DNA from: Rhizodiscina lignyota
Taxonomy: Eukaryota > Ascomycota > Dothideomycetes > Aulographales > Rhizodiscinaceae
NCBI GenBank assembly: GCA_010015805.1
Contig: ML978121.1
Location: 3,348,001-3,412,000, forward strand
Reading direction: 5' to 3'
Length of the DNA: 64,000 bases
Positions 3,987 through 32,124 of the stretch are shown one piece after another. Position 1 is the first letter of the stretch. The number at the start of each line of letters is the position of its first letter. Under the pieces are notes generated by a model. That model had not been told where the DNA came from and did not search any database. It saw nothing but the letters and a program-made list of their open reading frames with translations. The position numbers and the translations under genes are program-made.

Positions 3987-6900
3987 TCCCTTTTGGGATT
4001 AGACTACGAAGTTCCAACATCTATTGGTTCGCGAAGGGTGAATCAGAGAACATATTGTCAATTGCATGTATAGCCACGGAGTTGGAGGATCAATCTTTTT
4101 CGCGCATTGGGCTCAGAATGGGGACCAATTACCGCTGGCAGATGCACCGAGCGGTCTTCGCACGCATATCTTCTGATTCTCACGAAGGATGACAGAGCTG
4201 TTGTCCAGACAGGCACAGCCGTTTGAGATGTACGATTTATGGTAGTCATGTGTCTTACCTGCTTCTACCAATACGACAGGGCGCACTCTGCTGCTGCCCC
4301 GTTCAGTGGAAATCCGCCCCCCATCTTCGCTCCTAATTCTCGCAGACTCGTGCTTCGCTATAACCAGCGGACACTGTACGTCCGTCGTCCACTCCACTGC
4401 AGTCTCAAGTGCTCCAAGACAAGACCCGCTCTCACGCCCCTTTATTCCGCCTCTAATGATGACGTAGCAACTAGCCTCTCACTAGATCGTGGCATTTTGG
4501 AATCAGATTGATTAATTGTCGTTCGACAGCAACGCAGCTCCACCTGGAGTTGGCAGTTGAGAGTTGAGCCGGCTTACCCTCGCGATGGCAACTTCCGTAT
4601 AACGACGAATCTAATGCAAAAAGCATCCCCACTCCCAAAGCGCCGAACCGTTTCTTCTGCTTCCAGCGCCATGTTTCTCATGGAATCCTTCGCGCACGTT
4701 GTCTTGCTCGTCCGCACACACAACCTGTAATCCTGCAATTATGGTCGTCAATCAGCATTTGGCATGCTGCAGACCCGGAAACTCCATTTGCTGGCGCTTC
4801 AAATATGCTTCTTCTAGCCTCAGACCCGCTGAACGATTAGACGTCGAATTCTCCGTACGTGCCTTCCCGGACCGCGAGTCGTACCGGTATCGGCACGCCT
4901 TCCGAACGGTGTGGTAAAATTGCTCGCCCACAGCCGACCCAAACTCGTGCCGATTCTTCTTCTGCTCCTCCTCACCTCATCTTGTCCCCTCATTTTCTTC
5001 TCTCAATCTTCATCATGCACACTCCCAAAATCAGATCCAGATAAGATCTCCACTTCCCCTCTCAGAGAGGAAGGACGCTATAGCCGTACACCGCAAATCT
5101 TCGTCAACCTGGGCTTACACATATGCCATCCCATGCACCGTCTCACTAGCGCGCTCCAAGGAACTTTCTAAAGTCCTTCTACGCGCTTCGCTCCGCGCTG
5201 GCATAGATACATCTGCCCTGTACCTAGTCCGGGGCCCTTGTGTTTATCAAATTTCTCGACATGACTTGTCAACGCCCGCCAGAGCGGCTATGTCCGCTTT
5301 GCGTCGCGCAATCCCATATCCATATTGTGATATGGTGATGCTTCGTACCTCGAGCAGACTTGGCGACGCGGCCGAAAGAAGTAATCACCAAACTCGGTTT
5401 TTGAAACTTGGAGCATTAGTAGCTCGCAGTCCCATATGACCGCTGTACGAAGGATGCCCCTCCTTGCCCCGGGCCCGTACAGAGATGTAGAAGAAAGCCA
5501 CTTTATTCCCGCGAAGTACCAGATCGACGATACACATACTGCATACGTCGCCGTGCAGAAGCTGCATCTGCTCTGCTCGACGCGCCGTGCCCCTCCCCCT
5601 CCATCCACCACCACCCTGCTGAACCCTTTCCCGCCTCTATCCAATCTCCAATCCCCAAGGCCCTATCCGACCGGTACAAAACCAACCCCAGCGCCAACCG
5701 GCGCCCGATGACGCCTCAAAGGATTGGCTCGTCCGGCCCTGGCCCAGACCACGGTCCGTCCAAGTAGTCGTGCCGGCGCGACCACTGACAGCCGGGGAAA
5801 GGGACCTGTGACATCCGCCACCGAGGACAGCGCTGTATCTTCGTTCAGGAAAGCGCAAATGGCTGCTAATGCAACACCTTTGCACGCGCTGGCCAACGAA
5901 GATCGCGGGCCGCTAATCTGTCTAAAGTCCGACTTTTAGGACGCAAGACGATTGCGGGCATGGATAAGAGCGAGCTATTTTCCATTGGCGAGGAACTACG
6001 AATTTGATATTTCGTCATGACTTGGACACTCATTGAACGAGAATGAGTTCGTACGTGATATACTACATAACGGTCCCAGCGGCGTAAGCTTTGAACCACG
6101 TCGAGACCATTTTGAACAGCGGGGGGCGGGTGAAAGTGGGTCTATTCTAGCCTCGTAGGGCAGAGGCGAGGTGACAGCTTTAACATGAGAAAAAGGCAAA
6201 TCCGATCTGCGGGTAAAAGAGAGCAAATTCAATCGGGAACTTAAAACAATGATCCATACTCGCGGTTCACCTGAAGCAGCACGGCCATCGAGACAATTCA
6301 TCCAAAGGAGTCCAAACCCGGCAACAACCTTTGTTGGTTCTAGCGGTGACAAGAAGAGCACCACCGCTAGGTAAAAGGAATCCGGCAATTGTGATAACAA
6401 TATTGTGGCTTGTTTCACCTTCAACCGGCGGATAGATCATAAATCGATGAATTCCATGAGCCTGGAACGAAGAGAATCCGTTCGAGCAGATACGACAATA
6501 TGAGAGTTCGTAAAGGCCTCAACGGAAGACAAACTGGTAACGTTGGCCGGACAAAGCTCCACTCGAATGCTACCTCAGAGGCGATGCGGATGCGGATCGG
6601 AGATTTACTGAAGCCCAAAGTCCGCTACGGCTGTAACTCACTTTAGAGTCGGTTGGTCTTATGTAGAATGACGCCGTATACTCAGTTGAAGCTTTGAGCC
6701 ATCGATGAAGCCATCTGAGACCATTCTAACGCCGAATGTATCGATATGTGCTATCCATGTGCATCCCAAAAGCTGTGCTGGTTATCGGTGCCTAGCGTCT
6801 GGTGATTAGCTTCCAGCGCCTAAGGAGGATTGCGCAAGATTGGTCGCAATCAAAAGAGGAGAATGCAGTAGTGATGATCCAGGGTACATGCAGCTAAAGG

Positions 6901-8060
6901 CGTGACGTTGCTGACATGGGCGGCGGCCTTTGGCTGGGCAGACGGGGTAGCCAAGTGTCAGCACTGCGAAAAAGTGTATGAGGGGATTAGATAACTGGCA
7001 AAATGCCTTGAGTAAGCGGCCTCTGCCCGCCATCTGCAGAAAATGTGGGGCAAAGCAAGCTTTTGCCGGTGAGCAGGGTGCAGGGGTATTAACTGGCGAA
7101 AAATCGGAGATACTCCGGCTGATTGGTGGAGCTTTGGAAGGAGGGGTAATGTAGGCTTTTGGGCATTTGAGATGTGGACGACGAATGGGCGCGAGGAAGA
7201 GGAAAGAGGTTGAAAACAGTAAAGAGAACGAGCTGAACTGCAAAGTCGCCGTATCCCGGTGCCGTTTCCACAGAGCAATTAATATAGGAAAAAGAGCCGG
7301 TGCTACGGCTGCGAAGTCTGTGACAGCGTGCTTACTGATGGCATTGGCATGTGTCTGTGGAGATATCGTATAGCCTGTCCCACGATGAACCTTATTCTGG
7401 AAAAGACACATTGAGACTTAATGGGCTGATTTCCTAGACGCTGCAATTGACACGACTCATCCCGTTCCAACTCGACGAGGGAACAGGCTCGGGATAAGTA
7501 TGGAATCCCTGCCCATCTCGCTTTAATGTTCAACGAGGCTTGCCCCACATGCAAGTGGGAGCCGTTCAGGGTCCGATGCTCCCGAATTCGGGGCCGCCAC
7601 ACCAGGCGTCCAAGAAAGGGTCCTGAAGGCGGCTGTGGAGGCGGCCAGAGCCGGGCAGCTGGAATCGTGGCGCTTACTTTCCGTGGTAGATATACACAAG
7701 TCGATGCTGCACGTCAGATCTCGACGAGATTTCGGTGGCGAAACCGAATGCCCATGTCAAGGACGTTGTGAGTTTCCAGGGCACTTGCGGCTCTTTTCGC
7801 TGGGCGACATCTGTTCTCCTGAATATGCGCCCGAGTCCCTACCCATATGTCCGCGTGGATATTCGTGTAACGTCGGCAATAAAGATACGACACATGCAGG
7901 AGTGGAGCACGGTCCGTTGCATTGCGTTGCAAATCAGGGCGAGGCAAGGCGAGGCAGGGCTCGATTGCGAGATGCTGTAGATTATTGCCCAAAGCCCATG
8001 TCGGCTCGCCTGTCCAGAGTTGAGTTGTCTTTCTTGCAATTGACGCCCGAATGAGGCGCT
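3987..8060. other. 4 kb intergenic stretch
   Basis: No gene is recognised. The longest frames (5996-6424 minus, 6806-7411 minus, 7635-8054 plus) lack domain motifs and initiation context and have no plausible splice partners. No tRNA and no clear repeat were seen. It separates the bZIP gene from the 3' end of PLP2. Confidence 0.5.
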
Positions 8061-31239: not shown

Positions 31240-31249
31240 AAAAAAAAAA
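31240..31249 (-). terminator. RNA polymerase III oligo-T terminator
   Basis: Ten consecutive T on the minus strand begin 8 nt after the tRNA discriminator base. This is a strong Pol III stop and supports the gene being transcribed from the minus strand. Confidence 0.8.
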
Positions 31250-31256
31250 TTGAGTG

Positions 31257-31390
31257 CATCGGACGCGGGACTCGACTGAGGTACCAAGTCAGCAACTTGG
31301 CAAATAATAATGACTGTCCAATGAACTTACACCCGCAGCCTCCAGATTCCGGCTTAGAAGTCTGGCGCGCTACCATTGCGCCAGCCCGAC
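31257..31390 (-). tRNA. tRNA-Arg(UCU) with two introns, one spliceosomal-like in the T loop
   Basis: Read on the minus strand. Acceptor GTCGGGC (31390-31384) pairs with GTCCGAT (31264-31258) using two G-U pairs; the discriminator is G31257. The D stem GCGC/GCGC is perfect, with G18G19 in the loop and a good A box. Anticodon stem CCAGA/TCTGG is perfect; the loop is CTTCTAA with anticodon TCT. A 7 nt intron (31354-31348) sits at the canonical 37/38 site. The T stem GCGGG/CCCGC is perfect, but its loop is interrupted after T54 by 55 nt (31330-31276). This insert starts GTAAGT, has a CTGAC branch motif 13 nt from its end, and ends CAG. Removing it gives T loop TTCGAGT and a perfect B box. The mature tRNA would be 73 nt before CCA. 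A T-run terminator and an upstream TATA-like element support expression. It could also be a silenced copy. Confidence 0.85.
31276..31330 (-). other. 55 nt GT-AG intron-like insertion in the tRNA T loop
   Basis: Donor GTAAGT, branch-like CTGAC with A at 31289, acceptor CTCAG. An inner hairpin pairs CCAAGT (31300-31295) with ACTTGG (31289-31284) around a 5 nt loop. Length and signals match the protein-gene introns in this window. Only cutting at GT and AG restores a canonical T loop; a shift by one base would leave it one nucleotide off. Confidence 0.75.
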
Positions 31391-32124
31391 TGAAAATTTC
31401 ACTCGAAAAATCCCGAAGAAATCTATATACTAAAATAGCAAAAACGAAAAAGCGCTCTCACATACCCTGGATTCCAAGACATTCATTAGTCAATTGCACA
31501 ATTGCCTTTACGTGTTAAACGTTGTGTTGAGTGTTCTCGCTTTTACAATTTTTCCCCCCACTGTTAAAATTGTCGAACTGGTTTCACGAAGGATCAGGAG
31601 TTTCTATTTCCTGCTTGCTGTGCTCAAATTGAGCACAAAGCCCGATAACTCCAATCGCGATATTTGCATTTTCCCACTTTGGCAACATCTAACCTGCATG
31701 CCTAGCGCAGCAATTCAGCAATCGCTCGACTGTCTCCAAACTACAGGAACATTCCGAAAACTTTCTGTCTGACGTGCTGCTGACGATGGAACATTAATAT
31801 AAAGCTCCTCCGCACCCGCAGCTGAACTTGCGGCTCCTTCGGCCCCAATGTTAAAATTGACATTCACAGAAAAACATGATTCCAGTTTGGTGCACAGTCT
31901 TATTTCGAGAAATTTGGGTTTTATATTCTCATCGTTATCATCTCTCATGTCTCAGATAGATAAATCCCCATAAGAAAAGTTTTTGATGCATCGCCCGGGA
32001 TAATGTGAGTATTGCTCATTACAAAAAATAGTCGCAACCCATTCAAATGCCGTAGTGGTGTCCAATTTTCCCGCTCATGAATAGCCCCCGAACCAACACC
32101 TCGACTTGAGATCGAGTCAGTGCT
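31391..32124. other. AT-rich intergenic region upstream of the tRNA
   Basis: No protein gene recognised. It includes the TATA-like element just upstream of the tRNA and then the 3' flank of the KT-rich secreted protein gene. Confidence 0.5.
31424..31429 (-). promoter_or_regulatory. TATA-like element upstream of the tRNA gene
   Basis: TATATA on the minus strand, about 34-39 nt before the first tRNA base. Upstream TATA elements help Pol III start in some fungi, notably fission yeast. Here one could compensate for the B box being split in the DNA. Confidence 0.4.

What the first reader, a model, noticed from the sequence alone, without database searches (positions are those of the whole stretch)
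31257..31390. tRNA-Arg(UCU) gene carrying a spliceosomal-type intron in its T loop as well as a canonical 37/38 intron
All four arms pair perfectly except for two G-U pairs in the acceptor. Beyond the expected 7 nt intron at 37/38, a 55 nt segment (31330-31276) splits the T loop between positions 54 and 55. It has GTAAGT, a CTGAC branch motif 13 nt from the end, and CTCAG. Excising exactly GT to AG restores GGTTCGAGTCC. Nuclear tRNA introns in fungi are normally a single one at 37/38 cut by the tRNA endonuclease; a GT-AG intron elsewhere in a tRNA gene is, as far as I know, not a described arrangement. If functional, the RNA would need two different splicing systems.
Basis: partly seen in the sequence, partly recalled or inferred. 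Interest (0 to 1): 0.92.

Follow-up and report, generated by a model that had tools for sequence, protein, structure and literature searches.

The report
Spliceosomal introns inside fungal tRNA genes
In the fungus Rhizodiscina lignyota several tRNA genes are interrupted by messenger-RNA-type introns at unusual places, so some of its tRNAs would need the spliceosome as well as the usual tRNA-cutting enzyme.

Summary
Window 31257-31390 (-) is tRNA-Arg(UCU) with a 7-nt 37/38 intron and a 55-nt GT-AG insert between T54 and T55. Of 5,325 possible excisions, that one alone scores best as a tRNA. The genome is Rhizodiscina lignyota, a dothideomycete. My incomplete census found 39 nuclear tRNA genes; 13 carry 18 inserts outside 37/38, four of them in tRNA-Ala(AGC). 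All 18 are 48-57 nt and read GT/GC...AG; 16 have G at +5; 17 have CTNAY with its A 10-14 nt before the end, a combination met at 1.3% of random places. An automated search rebuilt nine of nine genes tested at 25-26 points; controls reached 13.5. Bulge-helix-bulge pairing, the mark of endonuclease introns, is not complete in any. No second tRNA-Arg(UCU) was found. Best explanation: U2-type spliceosomal introns in working tRNA genes. No RNA data and no related genome were available. The open-access papers searched showed no such case.

The parts
31257..31390 (-). tRNA-Arg(UCU) gene, with both inserts
31276..31330 (-). 55-nt GT-AG insert (spliceosomal-type intron) between T54 and T55
   Evidence: single best of 5,325 excisions; motifs
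31325..31330 (-). 5' splice site GTAAGT
   Evidence: sequence
31288..31292 (-). putative branch site CTGAC, branch A at 31289, 13 nt before the intron end
31276..31278 (-). 3' splice site CAG
   Evidence: sequence
31284..31302 (-). intron hairpin region holding the branch motif
   Evidence: fold; occurs once in the window
31348..31354 (-). 7-nt canonical 37/38 intron (tRNA-endonuclease type), AGCCGGA
   Evidence: ARAGORN after excision
31356..31358 (-). anticodon TCT
31424..31429 (-). upstream TATATA, starting at -39 of the tRNA
31240..31249 (-). run of ten T, probable Pol III terminator
   Evidence: sequence

Best explanation
The insert is a genuine U2-type spliceosomal intron in a working, Pol III-transcribed tRNA gene, one of at least 18 such introns in at least 13 tRNA genes of Rhizodiscina lignyota. 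Proposed course: (1) the TATA box near -39 places TFIIIB, so an A or B box broken by an intron is tolerated; (2) Pol III transcribes to the T run; (3) the spliceosome recognises GTAAGT, the CTNAY branch site and YAG and removes the insert, which lets the T arm fold; (4) the tRNA endonuclease then removes the 37/38 intron and the ligase joins the halves. Shown here: anatomy, boundaries, motif statistics, recurrence in the genome, TATA and T run, failure to find a second tRNA-Arg(UCU). Inferred: the splicing reaction, its order, Pol III transcription and the role of TATA.
For: Top score of exactly the GT-AG excision. 18 inserts in 13 genes: 17 GT-AG and one GC-AG, 16 with G at +5, lengths 48-57; 17 of 18 with CTNAY, A 10-14 nt before the end, against 262 of 20,000 random places with 4 nt of play at each end (1.3%). 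ARAGORN finds a tRNA in 13 of 13 after excision, in 5 of 13 before, four of those with another anticodon. Automated rebuild of nine of nine tested genes. Window protein-gene introns are similar: 56, 57, 59, 60 nt. TATAWW at -65 to -25 in 11 of 13 and TTTT within 13 nt in 13 of 13. AGA codons, which this tRNA reads, occur 17 times in three window genes. Precedent: a spliced mRNA-type intron in fission yeast U6 RNA (PMC10484740, passages).
Against: No RNA evidence and no related genome. The branch-spacing rule (10-14 nt) was taken from these same introns. Structure alone does not fix D-loop and variable-loop boundaries; for 5 of 18 another excision scored 0.5-1 point higher and for 4 of 18 two GT/GC...AG choices remain. 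The first Ala intron lacks a CTNAY near its end. ARAGORN calls the spliced Arg(UCG) 'Glu(ttc)'. TATA is not significantly commoner than in uninterrupted genes (P 0.15). The U6 gene has no intron. The hairpin could hide the branch site.
Confidence: 0.9

Rival explanations
1. The gene is a dead, interrupted tRNA copy and the GT-AG look is coincidence; another gene supplies the tRNA.
For: A review says that insertions in D or T arms of eukaryotic tRNA genes mostly sit in one of many synonymous genes and are taken for pseudogenes (PMC4090602, passages). No expression data.
Against: Arms intact; no second tRNA-Arg(UCU) (one match); 12 other genes with the same kind of insert; 17 of 18 with the branch motif.
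Confidence: 0.04
2. Ectopic introns removed by the tRNA endonuclease through a bulge-helix-bulge fold, as in archaea and Cyanidioschyzon merolae; the GT-AG ends are incidental.
For: Multiple ectopic tRNA introns are known there and in a nucleomorph (PMC4090602, PMC3978253, passages); 37/38 introns, so presumably the endonuclease, exist here.
Against: Complete bulge-helix-bulge in none of 18; mean 5.06 of 8 pairs against 4.70 at slid positions, where none was complete either (two of the 18 with boundaries later revised; the motif geometry is recalled). It would not explain GT/GC...AG in 18 of 18, G at +5 or the branch motif.
Confidence: 0.03
3. The 18 introns are recent copies of a mobile introner-like element that inserted into tRNA genes. 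This concerns origin, not how they are removed.
For: Many introns in one gene family of one genome; the Arg(UCU) intron has a hairpin. Introner-like elements with stable folds in Dothideomycetes are recalled, not looked up.
Against: Best pair scores 25; 3 of 60 shuffled sets reached 26. No second copy of the hairpin in the window. Protein-gene introns of the rest of the genome were not compared.
Confidence: 0.05

Closest known systems
mRNA-type intron of the fission yeast U6 snRNA gene
   Same: A short spliceosomal-type intron in a small Pol III-transcribed RNA gene; thought there to come from reverse splicing (PMC10484740, passages).
   Different: One intron in an RNA of the spliceosome's own core; here 18 introns in 13 tRNA genes, while U6 of this fungus has none.
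Spliceosomal introns in nuclear rRNA genes of fungi
   Same: Messenger-type introns in a non-coding structural RNA gene of ascomycetes (named in PMC11782384, passages).
   Different: rRNA genes are transcribed by Pol I (recalled); not tRNA, and no second splicing system on the same transcript.
Ectopic and multiple tRNA introns of archaea, Cyanidioschyzon merolae and nucleomorphs
   Same: Several introns per tRNA, also in D arm, anticodon arm, variable region and T arm (PMC4090602, PMC3978253, passages).
   Different: Those of archaea and C. merolae are cut by the splicing endonuclease at bulge-helix-bulge motifs, not complete here, and nucleomorph ones are 3-24 nt; here GT/GC...AG, branch motif and 48-57 nt.
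Canonical eukaryotic 37/38 tRNA intron
   Same: Present in this gene (7 nt) and, by loop length, in 11 of the 13 interrupted genes.
   Different: Different place, length and ends; removed by the endonuclease and a ligase.

Membership tests
U2-type spliceosomal intron | GT-AG (rarely GC-AG) ends with exact restoration of the exon | tested here: met
   17 GT-AG and 1 GC-AG of 18; single best excision for Arg(UCU) and for Ala 27/28 and 54/55, among the best 1-39 of 4,425-7,050 for the rest
U2-type spliceosomal intron | 5' splice-site consensus | tested here: met
   G at +5 in 16 of 18; NNNNGT at +1 to +6 in 12 of 18
U2-type spliceosomal intron | Branch-site motif at a fixed short distance from the 3' end | tested here: met
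   CTNAY, A 10-14 nt before the end, in 17 of 18; GT/GC...AG plus this motif at 1.3% of 20,000 random places
U2-type spliceosomal intron | Length like protein-gene introns of the same genome | tested here: met
   48-57 nt against 56, 57, 59 and 60 nt; only four introns, a fifth of 455 nt from a doubtful first exon set aside
U2-type spliceosomal intron | Removed as a lariat by the spliceosome | not testable with these tools
   no RNA data
Nuclear tRNA gene transcribed by Pol III | Cloverleaf with conserved residues and anticodon after intron removal | tested here: met
   ARAGORN 13 of 13 after excision, one labelled with another anticodon
Nuclear tRNA gene transcribed by Pol III | T-run terminator close downstream | tested here: met
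   TTTT within 13 nt in 13 of 13
Nuclear tRNA gene transcribed by Pol III | Intact internal A and B boxes | tested here: not met
   B box broken by the insert here and in Ala; D arm (A box) broken in nine other or same genes; an upstream TATAWW in 11 of 13 may stand in
Endonuclease-type (bulge-helix-bulge) ectopic tRNA intron | Bulge-helix-bulge at the exon-intron borders | tested here: not met
   complete in 0 of 18, about as paired as slid controls
Introner-like element | Near-identical intron copies across the genome | tested here: inconclusive
   the 18 tRNA introns are not alike beyond shuffles; introns of protein genes genome-wide not examined

The most novel reading that the evidence does not exclude
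In Rhizodiscina lignyota about a third of the nuclear tRNA genes, including the only genes found for several anticodons, can be matured only if the spliceosome removes one to four introns from a Pol III precursor, mostly together with the tRNA endonuclease. Translation in this fungus then depends on the spliceosome twice, for mRNA and for tRNA, and spliceosomal introns have spread through the tRNA gene family.
Probability: 0.82. Interest if true: 0.96.

Novelty: new variant of a known kind. Interest (0 to 1): 0.94.

Why it matters
tRNA introns and spliceosomal introns are treated as two separate worlds; [quoted passage not shown] If spliced as inferred, this fungus breaks that rule in many of its tRNA genes. 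It makes testable whether Pol III transcripts that are not mRNA or U6 enter the spliceosome, whether spliceosome and endonuclease act in a fixed order, and how introns are gained in structured RNA genes. It also means that tRNA finders can miss such genes: by the passages seen, tRNAscan-SE 2.0 looks for noncanonical introns in candidates from its archaeal model (PMC8450103), so other fungi may hide the same thing.

Tried and rejected
Rejected: pseudogene, endonuclease-type ectopic intron, recent introner spread (see rivals). L095 (C4:1352535, CAGTCGATTCC) looked like a third T54/55 case but is not a tRNA. L064 (C3:1441936) looks like a tRNA 3' exon split in the T stem, but I could not find its 5' exons, so it is not counted. 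The argument 'isoacceptors missing from the Rfam list must be interrupted' was weakened by my own result: Val(UAC), Tyr and Leu(UAA) were missed by that search yet have no insert outside 37/38. Initiator tRNA-Met was sought twice: one search gave one match that I did not look at further, none. U6 was checked for introns: the one match is intact. Boundaries first chosen for Arg(ACG) and for the first His intron were changed after to GTTTGT (55 nt) and GTGGGT (51 nt); one search picked the same for Arg(ACG). Searches used the first choice, searches did not; branch distances are measured from the unchanged 3' end.

Paper searches in which I saw no spliceosomal intron in a tRNA gene: no paper; 15 of 22 listed; no paper; no paper; 12 of 320 listed; one search gave the U6 precedent. 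The library is open-access PMC only. Of PMC3978253, PMC4090602, PMC8450103, PMC10484740, PMC13149111 and PMC11782384 I saw search passages, not whole texts; all others as listings. Recalled, from no call: A-box and B-box rules, TATA-placed TFIIIB in fungi, the geometry of the bulge-helix-bulge, introner-like elements, Pol I for rRNA, the endonuclease's need of a folded tRNA body.

Full report
WHAT IS THERE. On the minus strand, 31390 to 31257, lies a tRNA gene with acceptor, D, anticodon and T stems fully paired (two G-U pairs in the acceptor), anticodon TCT and a 7-nt insert at 37/38. The T arm reads GCGGG-T-[55 nt]-TCGAGT-CCCGC. The 55 nt begin GTAAGT, hold CTGAC with 13 nt after the A, and end CTCAG. 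ARAGORN does not see the intact gene, nor does Rfam at its gathering score; with the 55 nt left out ARAGORN gives tRNA-Arg(tct). I scored 5,325 single excisions of 25-99 nt for tRNA pairs and conserved residues without asking for GT or AG. The one best is exactly GTAAGT...CTCAG, at 36.5; the neighbours shifted by one base score 35.5.

ORGANISM. The mitochondrial processing peptidase gene of the window matches a Rhizodiscina lignyota protein at 100%, on a contig of 4,063,048 bases, the length of the contig that holds the window; two more window proteins match the same species. It is a dothideomycete of the order Aulographales. The genome held has 33.4 Mb in 29 contigs.

NOT ALONE. The Rfam tRNA search scored 63 of 934 candidates and gave 27 matches at E up to 0.001: 23 nuclear tRNA genes with no insert outside 37/38, three that look organellar to my eye, and tRNA-Gln(CUG), with GTAAGC...CTAAC...CATCAG in its variable region. 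A looser cut-off and patterns for a split T loop or for a B box before a T run (in one search, 52 matches against 2 for the reversed pattern) led to 11 more interrupted genes and to three without ectopic insert, Val(UAC), Tyr(GUA) and Leu(UAA). With the window's gene that makes 39 nuclear tRNA genes, 13 of them interrupted outside 37/38. Anticodons of the uninterrupted genes are read by eye where ARAGORN's choice of intron is ambiguous. I did not look at every match, and one search's list was cut at 100 of 127.

THE 18 INSERTS, by tRNA position: Arg(UCU) 54/55; Gln(CUG) 48/49; Ala(AGC) 15/16, 27/28, 47/48 and 54/55; Asp(GUC) 13/14; Gly(GCC) 9/10 and 19/20; Arg(ACG) 14/15; His(GUG) 16/18 and 51/52; Glu(UUC) 32/33; Ser(GCU) 16/18; a Gly(CCC)-like tRNA 29/30; Thr(CGU) 13/14; Arg(UCG) 16/18; Pro(UGG) 15/16. 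Ten lie in the D arm or just before it, three in the anticodon arm, two in the variable region, three in the T arm. Eleven of the 13 genes, all but Ala and Asp, also have an ordinary 37/38 insert of 6-25 nt by loop length. Loci: the window, L034, L060, L067, L068, L069, L070, L085, L086, L092, L098, L105, L112.

ARE THEY SPLICEOSOMAL. All 18 end in AG, 17 begin GT and one GC (GCGAGT); 16 have G at +5; lengths are 48-57 nt, mean 52.8. Seventeen have CTNAY with 10-14 nt after its A; the exception is the first Ala intron. With looser spacing, CTNAY occurs in 17 of 18 against a shuffle mean of 6.2 (maximum 14), and CTRAY in 14 against 2.8 (maximum 9). At random places of the window, with 4 nt of play at each end, GT/GC...AG plus the branch rule is met in 1.3% of 20,000 draws; 17 of 18 then has P about 2e-31. 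The spacing rule was read off the same introns, so that P is flattering, but the contrast is large. Scored without motifs, a GT/GC...AG excision is among the best 1-39 of 4,425-7,050 for each of the 18, and the sole best for Arg(UCU) and for Ala 27/28 and 54/55; for five (Asp, the first His intron, Arg(ACG), Glu, Pro) another excision scored 0.5-1 point higher than the one first chosen. In the D loop structure fixes the border loosely; for the first His intron, Arg(ACG), Arg(UCG) and Pro two GT/GC...AG choices remain, and I took the one that leaves a D loop of usual length. A separate automated search that knew only the T-arm position and the intron rule rebuilt nine of nine genes tested at 25-26 points outside the T arm. 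Of 19 control loci with a B-box-like site and a T run, 4 could be scored (at most 12); of 400 random anchors, 62 (at most 13.5). Arg(UCU), Ala, Gly(GCC) and His were left out of that test because the insert lies in the T loop or there is more than one. Protein-gene introns of the window, taken along database proteins, are 56, 57, 59 and 60 nt, all GTA...AG, three of four with CTNAY and its A 12-13 nt before the end; a fifth of 455 nt at a doubtful first exon was set aside.

ARAGORN. After excision 13 of 13 are called tRNA. With the intron fixed at 37/38 all but one get the anticodon I read; Arg(UCG) is called Glu(ttc). Before excision 8 of 13 give nothing, four give another anticodon, and Asp is recognised from its 3' part.

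ALTERNATIVES. Bulge-helix-bulge pairing, used by the endonuclease in archaea and C. merolae, is complete in 0 of 18 and averages 5.06 of 8 pairs, against 4.70 and likewise none complete at slid positions. The introns are not copies of each other beyond chance: best pair 25, 3 of 60 shuffled sets reach 26. A dead-copy reading does not fit 13 genes with intact arms, nor the failure to find a second tRNA-Arg(UCU): a search with the gene found only itself, and no other Rfam match has that anticodon by my reading (ARAGORN's 'tct' for L027 comes from a misplaced intron, it reads Leu(UAG)). AGA, read by this tRNA, occurs 17 times in three window genes.

TRANSCRIPTION. In nine of the 13 genes an intron breaks the D arm (A box), in two the T loop (B box), Ala being in both groups. 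Eleven of 13 have TATAWW between -65 and -25, at -33 to -41 (shuffle mean 1.4, maximum 7), as do 15 of 26 uninterrupted ones (shuffle mean 3.0, maximum 10); the difference is not significant, P 0.15. All 13 have TTTT within 13 nt. A TATA-placed TFIIIB would explain how broken internal promoters are borne; that is inference. The one U6 match is intact, so the U6 precedent of fission yeast is not repeated in U6 here.

LIMITS. No RNA and no related genome were available. The census is incomplete: initiator and elongator Met, Leu(AAG), Leu(CAG), Pro(AGG), Pro(CGG), Ser(UGA) and Val(CAC) were not found. 'Only copy' means no other was found by these searches. Novelty rests on open-access papers and on recall.

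VERDICT. By each sequence feature I could test the insert is a spliceosomal intron, in a class of gene, tRNA, where I found none described. The kind of intron is known; its host is new, which is why I rate it a new variant of a known kind. Whether the spliceosome truly removes it awaits an RNA experiment.

Noticed in passing
G000 C1:2469624, C1:2026853, C2:2185282, C3:46680, C3:3001899, C7:1683673, C8:424376, C11:985515, C15:610596, C16:53534; L071, L072, L078: Ten dispersed copies of a unit with an upstream TATA-like stretch, a B-box-like end (GGTTCGANTCCCGCGGGG and variants) and a T run; the three I looked at also have an A-box-like start. L071 and L078 match no Rfam family at E up to 0.01. 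Perhaps a Pol III small-RNA or SINE family.
   Followed up: partly
L065, L066, L087, L089 (C4:1227480, C4:1503571, C15:398698, C17:195604): Four copies of a unit with TATA, a U6-like 5' hairpin (TGCCTTCGGGCA; U6 of this genome starts near ACGCCTTCGGGCAT) and a B-box-like 3' end before a T run: possibly a U6-tRNA chimeric repeat. L065 has no Rfam match.
   Followed up: partly
L100, L101, L114 (C4:714742, C8:971400-972150, C14:99450-100160): Another dispersed unit with a B-box-like end and T run and a long shared body (GGTGCGCCTATAGCCCCTTT); L100 has no Rfam match.
   Followed up: no
L063 (C3, minus strand, around 377295-377330): A near-perfect acceptor-plus-T-arm minihelix, TGGTGTC-CGG-TTCGATT-CCG-GTA-GACACCA, directly before a T run and with no D or anticodon arm. 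Origin unknown.
   Followed up: no
L064 (C3:1441936, minus strand): Likely tRNA 3' exon (GTTCAATTCCCAGCACGACCA plus T run) preceded by ...CCCAG, as if an intron split the T stem; 5' exons not found within about 1 kb. Could be the missing Val(CAC).
   Followed up: partly
L013 (C12:600025-600173) and L030 (C7:652300-652370): Three tRNA genes that look organellar by eye, two of them five bases apart, on long contigs: possible nuclear copies of mitochondrial DNA.
   Followed up: no
genome G000: Among the 39 nuclear tRNA genes found every anticodon occurs once except Gly(CCC), which occurs twice (L025, L086): an unusually lean tRNA set for a 33-Mb genome, if the census is near complete.
   Followed up: partly
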